Translations under genes and position numbers: made by a program
Assembly: GCA_014799465.1 (NCBI GenBank)
Contig: JAAVHZ010000004.1
Coordinates: 26,131-90,130, forward strand
Direction of reading: 5' to 3'
Length of the DNA stretch: 64,000 nt
Source of the DNA: Lachnospiraceae bacterium
Lineage (GTDB): Bacteria > Bacillota > Clostridia > Lachnospirales > Lachnospiraceae
Shown here: piece after piece, positions 7,401 through 40,156 of the stretch
Position numbering within the stretch: the first letter of the stretch is position 1
Layout: each line of letters opens with the position of its first letter
Notes under the pieces: generated by a model
The model's input: only the letters and a program-made list of their open reading frames with translations
Told to the model about the DNA's origin: nothing
The model's database searches: none

Positions 7401-9712
7401 CCTGTGATGGGCTGCGGCTCTGCATATGTTTTTTCTGCTATAAGGTTTCCATCAGCATCATACCTGTAAATATTTATGCAGTATAATGTGGTGCCTTCTT
7501 TTGTTATGGTAAGGAGTTCTTTTTTTGACATCATCAGACCTGTTTCATTATAGGTGTATATGTCTCCCGGGTAGCGGTCTTCTTGTGCCATTCCTCCTGC
7601 TTCTGCCATTGCTTTTAATACTGCGGGGCTGTGGATGTGATTTTTTACATTTCCGTGCAGGTCATATATGTATGCATCAGTTATGTTCCCGTATGGGTCT
7701 TTTATCATCGTTATCCTGCCTGCACTGTCCCTTGTGTATTCGTATCCTCTGTTGTTTTCTTCATTACTGCTGTTTTCCAATACTGTTTTTCTTATGATTC
7801 TGCCGCAGTTGTCATATCCGTATGTTTCTGTGCCGTATGTGCCAACGTTCTTCTTTATTATCCTGTGGCAGCTGTCGTATTCGTATGTTATGCTTTCTTC
7901 CATGCAGTTTCTTTTTATTGCATTGCAGTCTTCTATTGCATCAGGTTCTTTTGTGCCGCATTTTCTTATAAGTATTATGTCTCCATATGCATTTCTTTTG
8001 TATATGGTCTTTCTGCCGCAGGCATCTTCCTCTGCTATGAGTCTGTCCATGCAGTCATATCCGTATTTTTCCCCTTTTTCCTGTCCCGGTCTTAGGATTT
8101 CAATAAGCCTCCAGCTTTTGTCATATTTATATTCCGTTACACCACCTTCACCATCCGTATATGTTTTTATCTTGTTATATTCAGTATATGTGTATTTTTC
8201 CGTTTTGTCTTCCGTTGTTTTTTCTGCAAGCCTTCCTGCATCATCATATCCCTTCCTTGTCTCTGTTCCGTCGGGTAATGTTACCAGCACAGGGTATGGG
8301 AATGTTCCTGAGTATTTATATTTTGTGCTTCTGGCGTTTTCATTTTTTTGTGTTGTCCTGCCGTAACAATCGTATTCATATTCCGTTACTGATTCTTTCC
8401 CTGTTTCATCAAGAAGTTTTCTTTCTTCTGTTATGTTGCCGTTTTCGTCACGTTTATATGTTGTCTGCCTTCCTGCGTTGTCCCAGGTCTTTGTACAGCC
8501 TTCCCTGCCATATTCATAACGTGTTATCAGCCCTGACGGTTCTTTTTTTACAAGGAGGTTTCCTTTTATGTCATATGTGTATGATGTGACTGCCCCGCAC
8601 CTGTCGGTGGTTTCAGATATGTTACCATATTTGTCAAGCTTTCTTGTTTCCTCACTGCCGTCAGGGTATTTTATACAGATTATGTCGTAGTTTTCATCGT
8701 ATTTATACTGTGTAACAGCCCCGTTTTCTTCTTCGGTTACGGTGTTTGTCCTGCTTTTTTCATCATATGTGCAGGTGCAGTACCTTCCGTCTGCCGTCTT
8801 CTGCCTTATTACCCTGCGGCTGTCATCATATTCATTTTCAAGGTATGTGCATCCCATGCCGTCTGTTATTGTTTTCAGGTTTTCTTTTTCGTCATAGGTG
8901 TATTTTATTTCTGTCCCGTCGCACCTTGTTACTTTTGTGAGAAGCCCTTTTTCATATTCATATCTTACGGTTCTGCCTGTGCTGTCCGTGGCTGATGATA
9001 TTTTCATGTTTTCCCGCTTAAATGTAAGGGTGTACCCTGTAGGAAGAATGATTTTTTCTATTCCGTATTCGTTGTATATATAGTCTGTGATGTTGCCGTT
9101 CCTGTCTGTTTTCTTCTCTATTTTTCCATTTTTGTCGTAGTAATATTTAACCTTTACTGTACTATCTGTGAATATGTATCCGTTTTCTGTTTTTTCCAGT
9201 GTGAATTTTTTTGTACCGCTTTTTTTGTTTATGTATCTGCTGCCGCGTTTTATGTATTCCGCAGTTTTCCCATTGGGCATGGTTACTGTTGCGACATTTT
9301 CTTCTTCGGTCACAAACGTGTCAGTGCAGAATGCCCATGCTTTTCCGAGGCTGCGGTCGGGTTTCTTTTTTGAAGGTCCGGTGTATCTCCTTGTAAGGCT
9401 GTATTCCCCGCCCATGTCGGGAAGTATGAAGTCTTTGTCTTCGCAGATGTATTCCCCTGTTGCCATGTTTACAGGGTCAATGTCTTCTGCATCGCTTTCT
9501 GTTGACTTTTTGCCTGTGACTTGTCTCTGCGGTTTATAATCAGTCTCACCTAATTTTTCTATCGGAAGTGGCTGCATATGCATTTCTTCCGTTTCTAAAG
9601 GCTGCCTGCTGCTTCCTGCTGTTGGCAGACCATTATTGCCCGTTACATTTTCACTGCTGTTTACTTTTCCTGTACCACCTAATACACTTGTCGATATTGT
9701 TTTACCTGCCAT
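4409..9712 (-). CDS. Rhs/YD-repeat polymorphic toxin; C-terminal toxin domain possibly type-30-like
   Basis: DUF6531-like N-terminus (DIDPVNMATGEYICEDKDFILPDMGG), dozens of YEYDxxGR repeats, Rhs core end YYLRARYYTPDTGRFIKADTYHGDGLNLYVYARNNPVKYVDPSGH, then variable tip YSFSVNGKRIEIKWHSADLNAAERYPGSNSGSGWTAQIKVGRKLLG; SD AGGAGGAG before ATG. Confidence 0.93.
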   Translation of the reverse strand: MAGKTISTSVLGGTGKVNSSENVTGNNGLPTAGSSRQPLETEEMHMQPLPIEKLGETDYKPQRQVTGKKSTESDAEDIDPVNMATGEYICEDKDFILPDMGGEYSLTRRYTGPSKKKPDRSLGKAWAFCTDTFVTEEENVATVTMPNGKTAEYIKRGSRYINKKSGTKKFTLEKTENGYIFTDSTVKVKYYYDKNGKIEKKTDRNGNITDYIYNEYGIEKIILPTGYTLTFKRENMKISSATDSTGRTVRYEYEKGLLTKVTRCDGTEIKYTYDEKENLKTITDGMGCTYLENEYDDSRRVIRQKTADGRYCTCTYDEKSRTNTVTEEENGAVTQYKYDENYDIICIKYPDGSEETRKLDKYGNISETTDRCGAVTSYTYDIKGNLLVKKEPSGLITRYEYGREGCTKTWDNAGRQTTYKRDENGNITEERKLLDETGKESVTEYEYDCYGRTTQKNENARSTKYKYSGTFPYPVLVTLPDGTETRKGYDDAGRLAEKTTEDKTEKYTYTEYNKIKTYTDGEGGVTEYKYDKSWRLIEILRPGQEKGEKYGYDCMDRLIAEEDACGRKTIYKRNAYGDIILIRKCGTKEPDAIEDCNAIKRNCMEESITYEYDSCHRIIKKNVGTYGTETYGYDNCGRIIRKTVLENSSNEENNRGYEYTRDSAGRITMIKDPYGNITDAYIYDLHGNVKNHIHSPAVLKAMAEAGGMAQEDRYPGDIYTYNETGLMMSKKELLTITKEGTTLYCINIYRYDADGNLIAEKTYAEPQPITGIPKGKARIIERKYNECGRLKEISDSEGAKAVYEYDIHGRKVKETALQDREKSRITEYEYDRCDRLTAQRVMEKQKSAPQQREKLQRRNGNRFLESRKIPKEPEIREKLIEETGYCYDKSGNIIKAVMPDGLTITYTYDESDRKTSVTASDGKNKEAARKNTYRYDEYGYLSEKTENGITTRYENDAFGNILKEKYADGGTTVYRYDINGRCTCIITPEENRKSEENAASCTAMGTATEYDLCGRPVKTTSPDGAILEENTYDSSGNILMQKNADGNSIKYVYDAGGRIKYTVTSAGVRREYTYDAIGNITAQSVGEEAVYYQTDMWGNVLEIKAAEDIKEKYEYDHMGNLTAATDGEGRRREYHRDIQGNTDRITYADGSLETYRYDAMGRMVTKTYRSGKKEEYGYDIFGNPVKIEAEQECLKEDIYSREQNEKYTYEYDRDGRIKSASGGGIKYTYEYDICGRLKSKSACGRTLLKYEYDLNGNKTSVTDVTGKTTQYEYDISDHLITIIENDKILAEYTYTLCGKVSKIKCGDIITEYRYDLDGRKEKIKVTVSGKVISDIKYIYDASGNCIKKLNGADGLNAVTEYKYDGIGRLTRVDNAGIIETYTYDHAGNRTNHTINGETTEKYSYNEVNELLSIERSTKQGSKNEIRNFTYDPDGNMTSDGRGIYKYDSLNRMTEAVMEDGRKLICKYDAEGLRHETEENGRLIRFIYSGRDAVCEEADDNITRYIRGNGRLVVSDSENARTYYHYACDSLGSITHVIAGNEFYSEEANANVNSRILCRYKYDAFGNTINSEETIANRYGFTGEMYDNITDMYYLRARYYTPDTGRFIKADTYHGDGLNLYVYARNNPVKYVDPSGHESQNSVSEIAKSDSGTELTIYDPEFAARQLLNCGTTSEELLRTTIPKDVPNTFVPSDTIEDGYKYSFSVNGKRIEIKWHSADLNAAERYPGSNSGSGWTAQIKVGRKLLGQDGNFYRRPKNATHIPLRGGE

Positions 9713-10154
9713 TTCTATACTCCTCCTTTGTGTTTTAATTTTATCGGGATATAATTTACATAAAAAGAGATACTGCCTAGGATTTGACTTTAAAGATTTG
9801 CGTGTTAAATTTTCCCCTTCTGTTTCTCTCCATACCCCTTTTTCTATAACGTTTATAATATATATTCATTTTCTCATATAAGTATAATCATGTCAAGATT
9901 TACAACTATGCCTAAAAACGACACACGCATAAGTAACTCAAGCATTAATTTCCAATATTTTGTATATCACAATCCAAAATCAAATATAAAATTATGCGTT
10001 TTATCAAGTGATTATTGCATATTTTTGAATAAATGTTTGAGATTTGTTTACAAAATATTTATTCATACATTTATCCTGCAGTACTTGACTTTTCCATTAT
10101 AAAGTGTAAAATGAAAAAGGTTTTCAAATTCATTTTGTATGGAGGTCAGATTGA

Positions 10155-10553
10155 ATGTATAATACAAAACAGCAGAAGGCTATACTTGGCTATATAGCAG
10201 AAAATACAGACAGTTACATAACTGTTAATCAAATTTCAGAACATATGAAAGAACAACACATCAAAATCGGACTTACCACCATTTACAGACATTTAGAAAA
10301 ACTCATAGAACAGGGACTTATAAGCAAGATTAAAGTTGACGGGCTTAATGGTGCATGTTTCAAATACGGTCAGCCGGAAGAAAGAGCATATTTCGGTCTT
10401 AAATGCGAAAAATGCGGTAAAATACTTAAAGTAGATTGTTCACATTTAAAATTATTTTATGAACATATTAATTCAGAACATAAATTCAGCATAAATCAGA
10501 ATAAAACCATATTTTATGGTATATGTAAAACATGTAGTGTATCTGCTCTATAG
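10155..10553 (+). CDS. Fur family transcriptional regulator (Zur-like candidate)
   Basis: N-terminal winged-helix (TVNQISEHMKEQHIKIGLTTIYRHLEKLIEQGLI) and CEKCGKIL...CKTC zinc-binding cysteines. Confidence 0.85.
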   Translation: MYNTKQQKAILGYIAENTDSYITVNQISEHMKEQHIKIGLTTIYRHLEKLIEQGLISKIKVDGLNGACFKYGQPEERAYFGLKCEKCGKILKVDCSHLKLFYEHINSEHKFSINQNKTIFYGICKTCSVSAL

Positions 10554-10598
10554 CAATGCTTATCCTAAAATCAAAATATAGATTGGAGACAATTATAA

Positions 10599-11600
10599 AT
10601 GAAAAAAAGAAGAACCACTATTTTTACCGCCCTGCTGATTACTGCCATACTGATATCAGGATGTGCAGGAGAAAGTAAAACAGGAAGTAACCCCGGGAAA
10701 ACCAACATGAAAGAAAACGGCAGGCTAAATGTTGTTACAACCCTTTTCCCATACTATGACTTTATAAGGCAGATAGCTGGAGATAAGATTAATCTTACTA
10801 TGATTGTACCTGCCGGAATGGATACCCACTCATTTGAACCTACAACGGAAGATATGATAAATATTCAGAATTCAGATATCTTTATATATAACGGCGGTTC
10901 GCTGGAACACTGGGTTACAAAAGTACTTGATTCAACAAACAATAAAAACCAGACAATCATGCGTATGATGGATTATACAGATATTCTGGAAGAAGAACAC
11001 AAGGAAGGCATGGAAGATGAGCATGATAATGAACACAAAAATAATTTTGACAAAAAAGATTTTGACGAAGAAGAATATGACGAACATATATGGACATCAC
11101 CTGTTATAGCCTGTACACTTGTAACTGAAATATGCAGTACACTAAAGGAAGCAGACAGCGAAAATGCAGATTTTTATCAAAATAATTGTGATAAGTATAT
11201 TGAACAGCTAAAATCATTAGATAAGGAACTTCACAATATAACAGATAATGCAAGAGTTAAAACATTAATATTTGCAGACAAATTCCCTTTGAGATACTTT
11301 ACAGAAGAATACGGACTTGACTATTTTGCAGCATTCAGCGGATGCAGTACTGATACAGAGCCAAGCGTAGATACATTAAAATTCCTGATAGATAAAGTAA
11401 AATCCGAAAAGATTAGTTATGTATACTATCTGGAACTCAGCAGCCAGAAAATAGCCGATACCATCTGTAGTTCCACTAATGCAAAAAAGAAACTGTTTTA
11501 CTCCTGCCACAATGTCTCACAAAAGCAGTTCAATGATGGAATAACATATATAGATATGATGGAAAAAAATGCAGAAACACTAAAGGAAGGACTAAAGTAA
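10599..11600 (+). CDS. znuA: Zinc/manganese ABC transporter substrate-binding lipoprotein (ZnuA-like)
   Basis: Lipobox ISGCAG; VVTTLFPYYDFIRQIAGDKINLTMIVPAGMDTHSFEPT; His/acid-rich loop EEEHKEGMEDEHDNEHKNN. Confidence 0.85.
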   Translation: MKKRRTTIFTALLITAILISGCAGESKTGSNPGKTNMKENGRLNVVTTLFPYYDFIRQIAGDKINLTMIVPAGMDTHSFEPTTEDMINIQNSDIFIYNGGSLEHWVTKVLDSTNNKNQTIMRMMDYTDILEEEHKEGMEDEHDNEHKNNFDKKDFDEEEYDEHIWTSPVIACTLVTEICSTLKEADSENADFYQNNCDKYIEQLKSLDKELHNITDNARVKTLIFADKFPLRYFTEEYGLDYFAAFSGCSTDTEPSVDTLKFLIDKVKSEKISYVYYLELSSQKIADTICSSTNAKKKLFYSCHNVSQKQFNDGITYIDMMEKNAETLKEGLK

Positions 11601-33604: not shown

Positions 33605-34063
33605 TTAGTTTACTACTGTATAGTTTCTGGTACTATCAGGACTCCAAACACCTTTAATAGTACCAGAAGCAGAACTTTTAAATCTAAGTTTTGCCAAAAC
33701 ATATGTATTACTTGCTCCACGATTTTCATAAATAAAGTTTGTAATACTTGATTGTACTTTAAGTTGCACTTTTGCTGATGGATTACTTCCAGTTCCTTTA
33801 GTCTCGTTATACCATAATGACGTATTTCTACTGCCTAATGTCTGTACAGTAATATACTTAGTAGGTAATTTTGTAAAATACACATATACTTTAGTAGTAT
33901 TCTGTTTATCTCTTGGGAGAGTTTCATAACTTACATTTGCTTTTATTTCTCTCTCACCAATTGGCTGGTCAGATACATTTGCCGCCTGCACACTTACAGC
34001 CGGTGTCAACATTATCGTACATGCCATTAACATGCATACTGCCTTTTTTAGTACTTTTCTCAT
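33605..34063 (-). CDS. Small secreted protein (signal peptide, tentative lactococcin-972/DUF2712-like C-terminus)
   Basis: MRKVLKKAVCMLMACTIMLTPAVSVQAANV signal peptide; C-terminal LRFKSSASGTIKGVWSPDST. Confidence 0.55.
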   Translation of the reverse strand: MRKVLKKAVCMLMACTIMLTPAVSVQAANVSDQPIGEREIKANVSYETLPRDKQNTTKVYVYFTKLPTKYITVQTLGSRNTSLWYNETKGTGSNPSAKVQLKVQSSITNFIYENRGASNTYVLAKLRFKSSASGTIKGVWSPDSTRNYTVVN

Positions 34064-34248: not shown

Positions 34249-34464
34249 CAATTCACCCCTTCCTATGTTCTCTGACAAAATTTTATCAAAAATGTTGTTA
34301 CCATGGCACCTTTATTAATATAACAATTAATTTAATTTTTCAACTGCAATTACCTAAACGACAATTTTACCGACACAAACAACATATATTGTAACTTGTT
34401 GTCGATATTTTTTAATGGTACAATAATATATATTAAATATATGAGTATATATTCAGGGGGTTAT

Positions 34465-35826
34465 ATGATTCAATCAATAATAAATTATTCATGGGAAATT
34501 TTCATTAATTTTTCCGAAAGTTTCTTATTCTTTATTTTTATAAATGCTAAAATGCAACCACAAAAAAACTCTTTTTCTTTTCACGGAAGGCAGATAATGT
34601 TTCTTTTTTTGCAAACTGCCCTGACATGTTTTTGCAATTTTTTTAATATTCCTACACTGATTACAGTGCTTCTTTCTTTAGTTTCAAATATAGCATTTGC
34701 GGTAATCTTTTACAGCAATACTTTTATGTTAAAGATATTTTGGGGAAGTATATATTCTGTTATCTGTATATTTGCAGAATATATAACTATGCTTATTCCA
34801 CAGACATTTTCACTTATAAAGCCTGACGAACTGCTTGCCGGAGGAAGACTCCGTATTCCAATGTCACTTCTTTACATTGCTTTAATTGCTGTATTTGTCT
34901 TTTTCTCAATAAATATAGGAAGTAAAAAAATGTTTTTAACTCCGATACAAAAGTCAGCATATGTAATCCTATGTGTTCTTGGAATTGCAGTGGCACATTA
35001 CATTTTAATAGTAACACTTAATGTATCACATTTTTATGCTATACAAAAACTGACAGACAGCCTGATTCTTACTAATATGTTCTTTTTGCTTCTGTTTATT
35101 GCACTTTTGCTGTTTATATATCAACTTGGTGTTTCAAAAAATCAGAATATGGTCCTTACAGAACAGTCCAAACAGTCTGCTTTAGAAAAGCAGCAGTATC
35201 AAAATTTATTAGAATCTACAAAGGCACTTCGTGAAATGAAGCACGATATTGAAATTCACCTTGATATAATACAATCATTAGCTGATAATAGCGACATCAC
35301 AAAACTAAAAGAGTATATAACAGCCTATCACAACAGCATAGAGCAGACACATCATTTATTATCAACAGGCAATACTGCCATTGACTGTATACTTTCTGCT
35401 AAACTTTCACAGGCAAAGAAAATGAATATAAAATTAGATTATTCCGTTCTGATTCCTAAACCATTTCCATTAGATTCAGTTAATTTATCTTCTTTACTTG
35501 GTAATCTGCTTGATAATTCATTAGAAGCCTGTCAACGCTGCTTAACTGCTAAAACAAACAGCATACCATGGATTTTATTTTATATTAAACCCTATCTTAA
35601 TATGGTTGTGATTCATATTGAAAACAGCACTCATGATATGGCAAAGATAAACAGCAAAAATACATTTGTTTCCTCAAAACACCAAAAGGGGCATGGCATG
35701 GGAATTAAACGCATTCGTTCCATTGTAAATAATGCTGATGGAATTCTCAATATTGTTCCTGAAAAGAATAAATTTACAGTACATATAATGCTTCCACTAA
35801 AGGAGGAAAATGATATTGAAAATTAA
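34465..35826 (+). CDS. agrC: AgrC-like GHKL sensor histidine kinase
   Basis: N-terminal TM domain; EMKHDIEIHLDIIQSLA; SLLGNLLDNSLEACQRC; GHGMGIKRIRSIV; SD AGGGGG favours ATG at 34465. Confidence 0.88.
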   Translation: MIQSIINYSWEIFINFSESFLFFIFINAKMQPQKNSFSFHGRQIMFLFLQTALTCFCNFFNIPTLITVLLSLVSNIAFAVIFYSNTFMLKIFWGSIYSVICIFAEYITMLIPQTFSLIKPDELLAGGRLRIPMSLLYIALIAVFVFFSINIGSKKMFLTPIQKSAYVILCVLGIAVAHYILIVTLNVSHFYAIQKLTDSLILTNMFFLLLFIALLLFIYQLGVSKNQNMVLTEQSKQSALEKQQYQNLLESTKALREMKHDIEIHLDIIQSLADNSDITKLKEYITAYHNSIEQTHHLLSTGNTAIDCILSAKLSQAKKMNIKLDYSVLIPKPFPLDSVNLSSLLGNLLDNSLEACQRCLTAKTNSIPWILFYIKPYLNMVVIHIENSTHDMAKINSKNTFVSSKHQKGHGMGIKRIRSIVNNADGILNIVPEKNKFTVHIMLPLKEENDIEN

Positions 35827-36532
35827 AATTACAATTATTGAAGACTGTTTAATTGAATTAAACAGATTAAGTACCGAGTTAGAAATCTGGAGCAAATGCT
35901 CCGGAATAGAAATCGAATTATACTCCTATTCTTCCGGTGAAGAATATTTTAGAAGACATCAGGAAAATGATGTCTCTGTTTTCTTTTTGGATATCCAGTT
36001 GTCAGGAATGAGTGGGATGACATTTGCAAAAAAGCTACGGGAAAGCGGTTACAAAGGGCATTTAATATTCATAACTGCTTTTCGTGAATATGTATTTGAG
36101 GGTTATCAGGTTCATGCATTGAATTATCTGCTAAAACCTATTACTGCCAATTCCCTTAAACCCTGCATGGATGAAATTGCAAAAGATTTATTAGGTAATA
36201 CCTATGTATTCCGCAATAAGCATGAAATAGTACAGATACCGTACACTGATATTCTGGTATTTTCAAGTAATATGCATTATGTTGACATATTAACTACATC
36301 AAAATCCTTTTGCCAATATACCTCGCTTAACAATATAATAAGTTATCTGCCAAAAGAATTTATACGGTGCCATCGCTCTTACATAGTTAATATGTCTCAT
36401 ATATACAAAATAAAAGGAAATACCATAGTTCTTTCAAACAACATGAAAGTTCCCATAGGACGTTCATTTTTAAATCATGTACAAATTGAATTTTCCAATT
36501 ATTCTTTTAGGTTTGACAAAGACATTTTTTAA
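35810..36532 (+). CDS. agrA: AgrA-like LytTR response regulator
   Basis: ITIIEDCLIELNRL; VFFLDIQLSGMSGMTFAKKLR; LytTR C-terminus LPKEFIRCHRSYIVNMSHIYKIKGNTIVLSNNMKVPIGRSF. Confidence 0.92.
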   Translation: MILKIKITIIEDCLIELNRLSTELEIWSKCSGIEIELYSYSSGEEYFRRHQENDVSVFFLDIQLSGMSGMTFAKKLRESGYKGHLIFITAFREYVFEGYQVHALNYLLKPITANSLKPCMDEIAKDLLGNTYVFRNKHEIVQIPYTDILVFSSNMHYVDILTTSKSFCQYTSLNNIISYLPKEFIRCHRSYIVNMSHIYKIKGNTIVLSNNMKVPIGRSFLNHVQIEFSNYSFRFDKDIF

Positions 36533-36543
36533 CAGGAGGACTT

Positions 36544-37095
36544 ATGATCACTAAAATATCAACATACTTTATTAACCAAATCACATCTATATCAAATATT
36601 AATTGTGATGCCGAAGATATTGAAGTATATATTTACGGCATGGAATGCTTTCTTAATACTTTCATTACAATTATAATACTGGCAATATGGGGATTGCTGT
36701 CTGATAGCTTAACAGGTACTTTTCTATGGATAGCCGTATTTTCTTCCCTTCGTCATAACACCGGAGGATACCATGCTCATACACATGCAGGGTGCATTAT
36801 CTCCAGCGTTTTACTTGGAATATCGGCTTCGTTTATTCCAATTATCAAGTATAAATACATACTTTTAATACTATTTTGCATTTTACTGCTTTTTTTAATT
36901 ATTGTCTCACCGGTGTCTTCAGCAGTCAAACCTCTTACTAAAGAAGAGAAAATAAAAAACAAAAAATATGCTGTTTTAAAGTTATGTATTATATTTTTAA
37001 TTTCATTATTACTTCCTCCCCAGCTTAGTATTTTTCCTGCCTATGCCGCAGTCTGCACATCATTATTAATGATTCCTGCTATATTCGTACAATAA
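36544..37095 (+). CDS. agrB: AgrB-like autoinducer processing endopeptidase
   Basis: RHNTGGYHAHTHAGC catalytic His/Cys context with multiple TM helices. Confidence 0.93.
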   Translation: MITKISTYFINQITSISNINCDAEDIEVYIYGMECFLNTFITIIILAIWGLLSDSLTGTFLWIAVFSSLRHNTGGYHAHTHAGCIISSVLLGISASFIPIIKYKYILLILFCILLLFLIIVSPVSSAVKPLTKEEKIKNKKYAVLKLCIIFLISLLLPPQLSIFPAYAAVCTSLLMIPAIFVQ

Positions 37096-37097
37096 GT

Positions 37098-37132
37098 GGA
37101 GCTGCACACTAATTATTCAGTGTGGCAGCTCC
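37098..37132 (+). terminator. Terminator-like hairpin after agrB (GGAGCTGC-ACACT...AGTGT-GCAGCTCC)
   Basis: 8+5-bp stem directly after the agrB stop. Confidence 0.75.
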
Positions 37133-37142
37133 TTTGTCCTGC

Positions 37143-38213
37143 TTAATGTACATTTAAGATATTACCATTTGACTGAAGATATCCCATTACAAAGGCACGA
37201 TGCTCCCTTGCATAAGCTTGAAAGAATGTCATTTTATGTTTTTCCCCTTCAAACTTATAATCCGGCAGATAATCATAATCAACAAAATCAGCCATTTGCC
37301 TTCTCCAGACACCGGACTGGTCTGCTTTAATGGTTTTAATCACATCATCTACGGCTATCAGCCACTGTTTTTCTTCAGGATGCTGTTCAGGAATAGTAAA
37401 TGTGTTTCCTGTACGAAAACATCTTAAAGCCCATTCCATTTGCTGAAATGCACAGGAAAAGTCTTCCGGACCATTTTTTATAATATTTTCTCCTGTAGCT
37501 TTCCAATAAGGATGATATTGATAGCTCATACATCCATAATCCGGAAAATGACCTGCACGTCCATGTCCCAGATAAGACATGGAATAGTTGCTAGGTCCAG
37601 GCGGCGTTGCCCCTGTTTCAAAATCTTCCGGCAACGGCAAAGGATCTAATCTCTTCATATCTTTTACCTCATTCACGAAATAGTTGGGCGTACCTGAAAA
37701 ATACTGATGTGCCCAGGTATCTGCCAAGACATGCATGAGAATTCCAATCATAATCAGATATTCCTTTTTTTCCTCTTGGTTACAGTGGGAAAAAACAGAA
37801 ACAGACCTTTGAATCATTTGTAAAACCAAATCGCTGTTTGGCTCACATATACATAAGAAATCACGCATATCCCGTTCACTTTCCATAGGTATAATCCCTT
37901 TATAACGGAAATGTCCGTCAATATTTCCCGGAAGAAAGTGAAAAGGCATCCAAATACTTCTAACAAGTTGTAATGTAGAACTCGTTTCATTTGACAATAG
38001 AGAAGATATCTCTTCTTTAATATTTTCTGTTACGGATTGACAGGTGAAAACAGGATCCCACCGATTCAAATAAGGGTAAAATTTATCAACATTCTCTTTG
38101 GTACATTCATCTACTGTCTGGGCAGCCCAGGCAATATCAGCAGCAGACTCAGGTGTAAAACCGGCAATAACTGCAGCAGCGTAAGTTCCTTCATAATGAA
38201 AATCTCTATTCAT
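37143..38213 (-). CDS. DUF6765-like / zinc-dependent phospholipase C-like protein
   Basis: HYEGTYAAAVIAGFTPESAADIAWAAQTVDECT; ILMHVLADTWAHQYFSGTPNY; start ATG 38213 after GGAGG. Confidence 0.7.
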   Translation of the reverse strand: MNRDFHYEGTYAAAVIAGFTPESAADIAWAAQTVDECTKENVDKFYPYLNRWDPVFTCQSVTENIKEEISSLLSNETSSTLQLVRSIWMPFHFLPGNIDGHFRYKGIIPMESERDMRDFLCICEPNSDLVLQMIQRSVSVFSHCNQEEKKEYLIMIGILMHVLADTWAHQYFSGTPNYFVNEVKDMKRLDPLPLPEDFETGATPPGPSNYSMSYLGHGRAGHFPDYGCMSYQYHPYWKATGENIIKNGPEDFSCAFQQMEWALRCFRTGNTFTIPEQHPEEKQWLIAVDDVIKTIKADQSGVWRRQMADFVDYDYLPDYKFEGEKHKMTFFQAYAREHRAFVMGYLQSNGNILNVH

Positions 38214-38634
38214 AATCCATACCTCCATGCTTTAATAAGTAATTTCTAAGTTTTAATAAAATTTTTTTGTGACGGTACTGGAGCGTAGTAACCGGAAGTT
38301 CCATCTGTCGGGCTATGGTGCGAAGCGACTCATTGTATATATAAATTCTCTGAATCAATTTACGTTCATGGGTTTCCAATTTCTTTAAGGCACACAGTAA
38401 ATTTTCCTCGTCTATGGACCGAATTACCCGGTCTTCTACAGGAAGGGCATTACTGTCTCCGAATATATCACAACCGTTCATTTCACTTGTATCTAATGCA
38501 TCATAAGAAAAAACCTTATTATGGGTGTCACTTTCTGCAAAATAACGCTCTTTTCTGACACCCTTCCAATAGGTTCGGTAAATTTCTTCCGACACGGGAA
38601 TCGGATTACCCTTAATCCATATTTTATACTCCAT
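38206..38634 (-). CDS. Small sigma-70 family RNA polymerase sigma factor
   Basis: EDRVIRSIDEENLLCALKKLETHERKLIQRIYIYNESLRTIARQMELPVTTLQYRHKKILLKLRNYL (region-4 HTH). Confidence 0.8.
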   Translation of the reverse strand: MEYKIWIKGNPIPVSEEIYRTYWKGVRKERYFAESDTHNKVFSYDALDTSEMNGCDIFGDSNALPVEDRVIRSIDEENLLCALKKLETHERKLIQRIYIYNESLRTIARQMELPVTTLQYRHKKILLKLRNYLLKHGGMDYE

Positions 38635-38689
38635 AATGTCTCCTTTTCTTTTTCATGTAAAAATAAATTAAATTCATCTTTTAAAAATC

Positions 38690-38701
38690 GAATATATGTT
38701 C
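38690..38701. promoter_or_regulatory. SOS-box-like GAATATATGTTC
   Basis: GAAT-N4-GTTC adjacent to the sigma-factor -10. Confidence 0.45.
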
Positions 38702-38708
38702 TATAATC

Positions 38709-38737
38709 ATCCTAGCACTATTTATTTATCATGTCAA
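38709..38737 (-). promoter_or_regulatory. Promoter of the sigma-factor gene: TTGACA (38732-38737), 17-bp spacer, TAGGAT (38709-38714)
   Basis: Consensus -35, near-consensus -10, correct spacing and orientation. Confidence 0.65.
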
Positions 38738-38750
38738 GAACATACGTTCT
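38737..38750. promoter_or_regulatory. SOS-box-like AGAACATACGTTCT
   Basis: Exact GAAC-N4-GTTC inverted repeat touching the TTGACA -35 and just upstream of the 38768 gene. Confidence 0.55.
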
Positions 38751-38767
38751 AAAAAAGGAGGAGTAAA

Positions 38768-39379
38768 ATGAAAAATGACACAATTATAATTCAAATTGCA
38801 AAACAGGATTTACAAATATTAAAGGATGCAGAGTATCATCTCTGCATTGCAGGCAGAATGAATGATACGGACTTTACCGTTGTCTGGTATGCAACAGAAA
38901 AATTTGCTTTTAATAATAAAATAACAATAAATGATGAATATGAAGTTTTTGCCAGCAACGGATGCTCAAAAAAAGTATTTGTAGATTTTCCGGGCACCCC
39001 GGCAGAGATAGGAGAAAAATGCTTAATAGACAAATACGGAATTATATCACAGGCAATAACGGGACAGAATCCAAATGCTATTGTACTAGTCAATGAATAT
39101 GGAAACCTGCATCCCGGTCTTAAACGAACGGGAACCGGCATTCAGGGTGAAGAATTCAGCAATCCGCTGTTTCTTTCCCGCAATGCAATACTCCCCGGCG
39201 AGTTTGAGTATTTTCCCTCATATCAGATTAAGATATGGTTTGCACAAAATACAGAAACAGGAGAAATGATACCACAACAGAAAATGCGGTCAGCACTAAC
39301 AAATTATATTCTGGTAGATTTAGAGAAAAGAAATGCTCCGGTACTGAGCTTTTCTAACGGCACCTGGAAATTTATTTAA
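38768..39379 (+). CDS. Uncharacterised 203-aa protein, paralogue A
   Basis: SD AAAGGAGGAG; alignable to 39476-40087 and of equal length. Confidence 0.8.
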   Translation: MKNDTIIIQIAKQDLQILKDAEYHLCIAGRMNDTDFTVVWYATEKFAFNNKITINDEYEVFASNGCSKKVFVDFPGTPAEIGEKCLIDKYGIISQAITGQNPNAIVLVNEYGNLHPGLKRTGTGIQGEEFSNPLFLSRNAILPGEFEYFPSYQIKIWFAQNTETGEMIPQQKMRSALTNYILVDLEKRNAPVLSFSNGTWKFI

Positions 39380-39386
39380 TTATTTT

Positions 39387-39407
39387 CGTACATATGTTCG
39401 TGCGAAC
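39387..39407. promoter_or_regulatory. Overlapping inverted repeats CGTACATATGTTCG and GTTCGTGCGAAC
   Basis: One mismatch from CGAAC-N4-GTTCG; followed by palindrome GTGACGTCAC at 39426-39435. Confidence 0.45.
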
Positions 39408-39475
39408 GGATAAATAGTGTAACCAGTGACGTCACAAAACAAATTTAATCAGATTATATTATGGAGGTAATTATT

Positions 39476-40087
39476 ATGTGTCAAAAATCAATTATTGTAA
39501 CATTAGACCCTGCATCATTAAAGGGACTGAAAGAATCAAAATATTCTCTTTGCTTTGCCAAAAAGGTAAATGATGCCTATAACGTAATATGGAGATCAAG
39601 CAAAAAATATCTTGCCAGAAATATCTTTTCATGGAAGCCTAAATATGCGGTATTTGGTACCAACACCTATGAAGCATCAGTTAAGGTTACTGCAGATACT
39701 GCAGTTGTCAATGCAGAATTAGGACAGGAGTGCACTCTGGATAAAAATGGAATTATGAATGACGCTATTAGCGGAACACATCCAATGAGTGTTACGATTA
39801 ACAATAAATATGGACCAATACATCCTGGTATAAGCCAGATATGTACTATTGACGGAATTGAAGAAACTACACCAATCTATGTGTCAAAAGATTCCCGTAC
39901 AAAAGGAGAGATTATTCTGACACCAAAGGAAAAGGTTCTGATATGGTTTGAGGCAGATGTAGAAACAAGTACAATTTTCGAAGATGCAAAAACAGATGCG
40001 ATTGAAATTGACTTAACCAATAAGGAGTCACAGACCATAAGCTTTGACTTTGAATCAGGTACCTGGAAAGTATTAGAAACAAAATAA
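39476..40087 (+). CDS. Uncharacterised 203-aa protein, paralogue B
   Basis: GGAGG upstream of ATG 39476; shared pattern LKxxxYxLCxAxxxND...VxWxxxxK...YxVFxxN...GIxxxAIxGxxPxxxxxxNxYGxxHPGxxxxxxGIxxE...SFxxGTWK. Confidence 0.8.
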   Translation: MCQKSIIVTLDPASLKGLKESKYSLCFAKKVNDAYNVIWRSSKKYLARNIFSWKPKYAVFGTNTYEASVKVTADTAVVNAELGQECTLDKNGIMNDAISGTHPMSVTINNKYGPIHPGISQICTIDGIEETTPIYVSKDSRTKGEIILTPKEKVLIWFEADVETSTIFEDAKTDAIEIDLTNKESQTISFDFESGTWKVLETK

Positions 40088-40121
40088 AGTTTTTAAAATG
40101 AATATATGTTCTTTATGAAAT

Positions 40122-40156
40122 ATGGCTGTCACACTAAATAATCAGTGTGCAGCCAT
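40122..40156 (+). terminator. Rho-independent terminator after paralogue B
   Basis: GGCTG-t-CACACT...AGTGTG-CAGCC followed by TTTTT. Confidence 0.8.

What the first reader, a model, noticed from the sequence alone, without database searches (positions are those of the whole stretch)
37143..40156. Small sigma factor plus twin 203-aa proteins and a DUF6765-like protein: possible SOS-inducible effector module
A region-4 sigma factor and a phospholipase-C-like/DUF6765-like gene diverge from two adjacent paralogues of exactly 203 aa with no recognised family. A LexA-controlled sigma factor driving bacteriocin/toxin genes has precedent in clostridial UviA. The paralogues lack signal peptides, so release by lysis or a phospholipase-like partner is conceivable.
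Basis: partly seen in the sequence, partly recalled or inferred. Interest (0 to 1): 0.68.

Follow-up and report, generated by a model that had tools for sequence, protein, structure and literature searches.

The report
DNA-damage-triggered two-step effector switch
A small gene cluster in a probable gut-type Firmicute looks wired to switch on when DNA is damaged: the SOS repressor LexA appears to hold down a small sigma-like activator, which in turn appears to switch on one of two related proteins of a so-far unknown fold, and related bacteria use the same switch to drive quite different proteins.

Summary
Four near-perfect LexA boxes lie within 1.4 kb; of the genome's twelve others, one is at lexA and eleven lie inside reading frames. 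In nine genomes the sigma-like gene has TTGACA-17-(-10) with a LexA box beside it, at one fixed distance in seven. More distant relatives have no box.

Gene B has a second, different promoter-like element (ACATAYGTTYG-N6-CGGATNAATAGTG, then usually a palindrome centred on CG). It recurs before a sipW-type gene in four relatives, before gene B in two, before an unknown two-gene operon 4.4 Mb from the factor in another, and before a decayed effector in one. This fits a two-tier circuit: LexA, then a region-4-only activator, then an exchangeable effector.

The factor is not a UviA/TcdR-type sigma (no region 2 found). The 203-aa proteins have a confident, mostly beta model with no match among solved folds. 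What they do is not shown, and DUF6765-aided release is not supported. There are no expression data. New variant of a known kind (LexA-controlled alternative sigma), with a candidate new promoter class and a new effector family.

The parts
37143..38213 (-). DUF6765 gene (metal-enzyme-like, function unknown), second gene of the factor operon; not conserved with the module
   Evidence: PF20551 E 2.6e-59; absent from G070 and G385 loci
38206..38634 (-). region-4-only sigma-like factor, 142 aa
   Evidence: sigma region 4 matches, no region 2; 45-55% identical relatives in eight genomes
38709..38737 (-). sigmaA-type promoter of the factor: TTGACA-17-TAGGAT
   Evidence: the same TTGACA-17-(-10) in all nine genomes
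38690..38701 (.). LexA box GAATATATGTTC: 8 nt behind the factor's -10 and inside the spacer of gene A's promoter
38680..38707 (+). sigmaA-type promoter of gene A (TTTAAA-16-TATAAT), LexA box in the spacer; conserved in G070 and G385
38738..38749 (.). LexA box GAACATACGTTC, abutting the factor's -35 and just before gene A's RBS
38768..39379 (+). gene A, 203 aa, no known family
   Evidence: A genes of three genomes group together (98/94)
39388..39399 (+). LexA-like box GTACATATGTTC, left part of the gene B promoter element
39391..39417 (+). candidate target promoter of the factor: CATATGTTCG-N6-CGGATAAATAG
   Evidence: same element and spacing at nine loci
39426..39435 (+). palindrome GTGACGTCAC near the predicted gene B start site
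   Evidence: palindromes of 8 nt or more at the same place in 6 of 7 independent loci
39476..40087 (+). gene B, 203 aa, confident mostly-beta model without known fold relative
40100..40111 (.). fourth LexA-like box GAATATATGTTC behind gene B, no gene found under it
37101..37129 (.). hairpin-forming repeat, left edge of the module; 90% matched copy at 40125-40153
   Evidence: D8, I1
40125..40153 (.). hairpin-forming repeat, right edge of the module
   Evidence: D8, I1

Best explanation
A two-tier SOS switch. Step 1 (inferred from conserved anatomy, strongest): LexA on the operators between the factor gene and gene A blocks two divergent sigmaA promoters; DNA damage removes LexA and both are transcribed. 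Step 2 (inferred from recurrence of the element with this factor clade): the factor, which carries only the sigma region that reads the -35 element, acts at ACATAYGTTYG-N6-CGGATNAATAGTG before gene B and brings RNA polymerase there, as a partial sigma or as an activator. Because the left part of the element resembles a LexA box, LexA may gate this promoter too, so that B needs both loss of LexA and presence of the factor and comes after A. Step 3 (weakest): A and B are beta-rich effectors without export signal, made in damaged cells and probably acting outside the producer after it dies or lyses; relatives plug other proteins into the same switch (SipW plus a SipW-type exported protein, or an unknown two-protein unit). 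Toxin, matrix and protective roles are not told apart.
For: 16 LexA-type sites within one mismatch in 3.6 Mb, four in this 1.4 kb, one 43 nt before lexA, eleven inside ORFs; chance of four here about 2e-11. Nine of nine intact factor genes have TTGACA-17-(-10) with a LexA box, 8 nt behind the -10 in seven; more distant factor relatives have none within about 1.5 kb. The gene B element recurs with exact spacing before B in G070 and G385, before sipW-type genes in G111, G019, G283 and G342, before a two-gene operon in G046 and a decayed one in G361; control genomes G119 (broken factor), G203 and G300 have no match at one mismatch or fewer. Palindrome downstream: 10 nt or more in 5 of 7 loci against 0.15 expected. 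Precedent: SigN of B. subtilis is LexA-repressed and has its own promoter consensus (PMC6751061).
Against: No expression or binding data. The factor lacks region 2, so it may not be a sigma at all. The element contains a LexA-like box, so part of its conservation could be LexA's. In G019 the site has two mismatches, tied with two others in that genome. The effector role of A and B rests on analogy; no toxin, lysis or immunity gene was recognised. Distant homologues of A and B, where looked at (C. muellerianum), show no LexA box.
Confidence: 0.6

Rival explanations
1. Plain LexA regulon without a second tier: the box before gene B and sipW is only a LexA operator, sigmaA reads that promoter, and the region-4 factor does something else.
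For: The element's left part is within one mismatch of the LexA box in most loci; boxes are also next to gene A.
Against: No sigmaA promoter at a usable place before gene B (the nearest, 39431-39460, would start inside the RBS); CGGATNAATAGTG at fixed spacing is not explained by LexA; the right half-box is kept better than the left; in G046 the element stands 4.4 Mb from the factor and has no perfect box.
Confidence: 0.2
2. A and B are a toxin and its immunity or antitoxin partner rather than two effectors, A being made first from its own promoter to protect the producer.
For: A and B are ancient paralogues under different promoters, with A directly LexA-controlled.
Against: Other bacteria carry a single B-like protein without any A; the G070 A frame is interrupted while B is intact.
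Confidence: 0.12
3. Remnant of a mobile element: the factor is a late-gene activator of a prophage or integrative element and A and B are cargo or structural leftovers.
For: Wider factor family on plasmids and phages; patchy distribution, 3 of 397 genomes; SOS control is usual for prophages.
Against: No integrase, capsid or conjugation gene was seen beside the module; no relatives of A/B or the close factor clade in phage records or viral contigs; the switch is kept in nine genomes with different neighbours.
Confidence: 0.1
4. One reading: UviA-type sigma driving both 203-aa bacteriocins, released by the phospholipase-like DUF6765 protein.
For: LexA boxes and a sigma-like factor are present; DUF6765 is in the factor operon.
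Against: No region 2 detected; DUF6765 is not kept with the module; no target element before gene A; no evidence of killing.
Confidence: 0.07

Closest known systems
SigN (ZpdN) of Bacillus subtilis plasmid pBS32 (PMC6751061)
   Same: LexA-repressed sigmaA promoter drives an alternative sigma, which then reads its own promoter class after DNA damage.
   Different: SigN has a regulon with autoactivation and causes cell death; here the factor has region 4 only, the element is usually found once per genome, and no element was seen before the factor itself.
UviA/TcdR/BotR group of clostridial sigma factors (PMC4885068)
   Same: A small sigma encoded beside the genes it is thought to switch on.
   Different: No region 2 found and a different target element; not a member.
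Xpf of PBSX and SigO-RsoA of B. subtilis (listed in PMC10141391)
   Same: Small or split sigma-like positive control factors; Xpf is tied to the DNA-damage-induced PBSX element.
   Different: Xpf is listed with both sigma2 and sigma4; no co-sigma partner gene was recognised here. Sequence relation not tested.
SipW and SipW-dependent exported proteins (TasA/camelysin type)
   Same: Relatives put a SipW-like peptidase and a SipW-type exported protein under this same switch.
   Different: The window has neither gene, and its effectors have no signal peptide.

Membership tests
LexA (SOS) regulon of Firmicutes | GAACN4GTTC-type operator overlapping the promoter, same type as the genome's own lexA operator | tested here: met
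   operator form from PMC4234289
LexA (SOS) regulon of Firmicutes | derepression after DNA damage or loss of LexA | not testable with these tools
   needs expression data
UviA/TcdR (group 5) sigma factors | sigma regions 2 and 4 both present | tested here: not met
   only region 4 matched, residues 59-133
Sigma-70 region 4 proteins | region 4 helix-turn-helix match over the curated cut-off | tested here: inconclusive
   PF08281 24.7 against 25.7 bits, TIGR02937 36.6 against 42.9; consistent in relatives
DUF6765 (PF20551) | profile match over the gathering score | tested here: met
   201.9 against 26.6 bits
Zinc-dependent phospholipase C (PF00882) | profile match over the gathering score | tested here: not met
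   19 against 26.8 bits
Known fold or family for the 203-aa proteins | Pfam/NCBIfam/PADLOC/PHROGs match or a solved fold match | tested here: not met
SipW / SipW-dependent exported proteins (relatives G019 and G283) | archaeal-type signal peptidase and SipW-type signal peptide over the cut-off | tested here: met
   TIGR02228 86-87 against 51.85 bits; TIGR04088 25-26 against 19
Aegerolysin-like proteins (126-aa target in G046) | profile or fold match | tested here: inconclusive
   no Pfam match even at E 10; model too poor to compare; resemblance is from memory only

The most novel reading that the evidence does not exclude
An unrecognised class of SOS switch: a sigma-like factor with region 4 only, co-opted from mobile elements, reads its own bipartite promoter that usually occurs once per genome, and different bacteria plug different effectors into it (203-aa proteins of a new fold, SipW plus an exported matrix-type protein, another two-protein unit), so that the promoter element itself can be used to find unknown SOS effectors.
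Probability: 0.4. Interest if true: 0.75.

Novelty: new variant of a known kind. Interest (0 to 1): 0.6.

Why it matters
It would show a second regulatory tier of the SOS response in gut-type Firmicutes and give a DNA signature that finds its outputs; in G046 the signature alone led to a two-gene operon 4.4 Mb from the factor on the contig. It also marks out a roughly 200-aa protein family, shared by Firmicutes, Actinobacteria and Alphaproteobacteria, with a confident model and no known fold relative, as a target for structural and functional work.

Tried and rejected
Fold search of the gene B model against PDB and viral structures: nothing at E 0.001 or better. Profile search of PDB sequences: one chance-level hit, E 0.15. 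Single-sequence model of the G046 126-aa protein: pLDDT 40, too poor to search. Relatives of A/B in phage records and viral contigs: none; none of the close factor clade in viral contigs. The element as a pattern in viral contigs: 16 matches, none with an exact consensus LexA box on its contig, taken as chance. Relatives of the two G046 proteins in plasmids: none. UviA-group membership rejected for lack of region 2. Phospholipase-aided release set aside because DUF6765 is not conserved with the module. The bare GAACN4GTTC scan with one mismatch is at chance over the window as a whole (14 against 13): the signal is the clustering, the ATAT core and the conservation, not the window count.

Full report
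What is there. The window holds a divergent cluster: a region-4 sigma-like gene (38206-38634) with a DUF6765 gene behind it (ending at 37143) on the minus strand, and two homologous genes of exactly 203 codons, A (38768-39379) and B (39476-40087), on the plus strand. A and B are 32% identical (E 4e-39) and match no family in Pfam, NCBIfam, PADLOC or, convincingly, PHROGs.

SOS control. Four boxes of the type GAACATATGTTC lie at 38690, 38738, 39388 and 40100. In the whole 3.6-Mb genome only 16 sites come within one mismatch. Four are here; one is 43 nt before the genome's own lexA, which stands opposite a LysM-type gene; the other eleven are inside reading frames. The chance of four in this stretch is about 2e-11. 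The published operator for Bacillus and clostridia is GAACN4GTTC or close to it (PMC4234289).

Conservation of the first tier. All nine intact copies have TTGACA, 17 nt and a -10, with a LexA box beside it: starting 8 nt behind the -10 in seven, 11 in G070, and in the spacer and at 15 in G111. The more distant relatives of the factor have no box within about 1.5 kb, nor has a broken close copy in G119. Gene A has a TATAAT promoter with the box inside its spacer, conserved in G000, G070 and G385. So LexA can shut both divergent promoters.

A second promoter class. Gene B has no sigmaA promoter at a usable place. Instead it has GTACATATGTTCG-N6-CGGATAAATAGTG. The same element, with the same spacing, stands before B in G070 and G385, and before a SipW-type signal peptidase gene in G111, G019, G283 and G342; in G111, G019 and G283 a SipW-type exported (TasA/camelysin-like) gene follows, tested by profile for G019 and G283 and by eye for G111. 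Searched over seven genomes, the only matches with zero or one mismatch are those before such genes, one per genome; the G019 site has two mismatches, tied with two others there. In G046 the one-mismatch hit lies 4.4 Mb from the factor on the contig, directly before a two-gene operon of 126 and 215 aa. In G361, of the same genus as G046, the element is intact but its effector is reduced to a fragment. Behind the element comes a self-complementary stretch centred on CG (GTGACGTCAC, GTAACGTTAC, GTAGCGCTAC, ATGCAGCGCTGCAT, TGACGTCA): 10 nt or more in 5 of 7 independent loci against 0.15 expected, and none of 20,000 shuffled sets as good. The right half of the box and CGGAT are kept better than the left half, so the element is not merely a LexA operator.

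The factor. Pfam and NCBIfam see region 4 only. It therefore cannot be filed with UviA/TcdR, and it is open whether it works as a partial sigma with an unseen region-2 partner or as an activator of sigmaA polymerase. The wider family is found on Enterococcus, Streptococcus and Monoglobus plasmids and Streptococcus phages at about 28-33% identity. In several relatives a Mu Com-like zinc ribbon gene is encoded between the LexA box and the factor.

The 203-aa proteins. Only 3 of 397 sampled family genomes have them. Homologues at 45-49% identity occur singly in Clostridium muellerianum, Aurantimonas, Amycolatopsis and Lentzea and at about 40% on Aminobacter plasmids; some carry an N-terminal extension or a C-terminal hydrophobic segment. 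The C. muellerianum locus shows no LexA box. This patchiness points to horizontal spread. The AlphaFold model of B from ten sequences is confident (pLDDT 93, pTM 0.88) and beta-rich with one N-terminal helix; no solved or viral fold matches at E 0.001 or better. A and B have no membrane segment by a simple scan. In G070 and G385 a trypsin-like protease gene follows B and DUF6765 is absent, which argues against DUF6765 as an essential partner. The A genes group together (98/94); the A reading frame of G070 is interrupted.

Judgement. LexA control: about 0.88. Factor drives gene B through the new element: about 0.6. A and B as effectors acting outside the cell: about 0.4, with toxin, immunity pair, matrix and protective protein as alternatives. 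The nearest experimental precedent is SigN of B. subtilis (PMC6751061); the differences are the missing region 2, the usually single target site and the exchangeable effectors. No paper on DUF6765 was found in the library, and none of the papers listed for SipW/TasA with LexA or for Lachnospiraceae with SOS appeared from title and abstract to describe this switch; that is a limited search, not proof of absence.

Noticed in passing
window 34396-37095: An Agr-type set (GHKL sensor kinase, LytTR regulator, AgrB; PF04647 E 6e-30) lies directly left of the module; no AgrD peptide gene was recognised between AgrB and the module.
   Followed up: partly
L020 (G504) 8114-10704: A distant 203-aa-family gene is followed by two short peptides made of CDP-type Cys-rich repeats and a radical SAM/SPASM protein, as in peptide-modifying clusters.
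   Followed up: partly
L071 6642-6797; also upstream of the factor in L072, L074, L124: A Mu Com-like zinc ribbon gene (PF10122 22.7 against 22.9 bits) sits between the LexA box and the factor in several relatives.
   Followed up: partly
L108 7209-8250 (G046): The two-gene operon behind the element codes for a 126-aa and a 215-aa protein without family; the first resembles aegerolysin-like toxins to the eye only.
   Followed up: partly
L125 (G361): The promoter element is intact but the effector behind it is reduced to a fragment, a decayed target under a kept promoter.
   Followed up: partly
L124 5259-6989 (G361): A contractile tail sheath-like gene stands next to the factor, with FHA-type and kinase-like genes on the other side.
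   Followed up: no
window 37101-37129 and 40125-40153: Near-identical hairpin-forming repeats flank the module on both sides.
   Followed up: no
window 40100-40111: A fourth LexA-like box stands behind gene B with no gene reading away from it; its surroundings repeat those of the 38690 box (D3).
   Followed up: no
L018 10018-10749 and L019 7986-8870: A trypsin-like protease gene follows gene B in both other loci that carry A and B.
   Followed up: partly
window 33605-34063: A 152-aa protein with a signal peptide by eye and no Pfam match.
   Followed up: no
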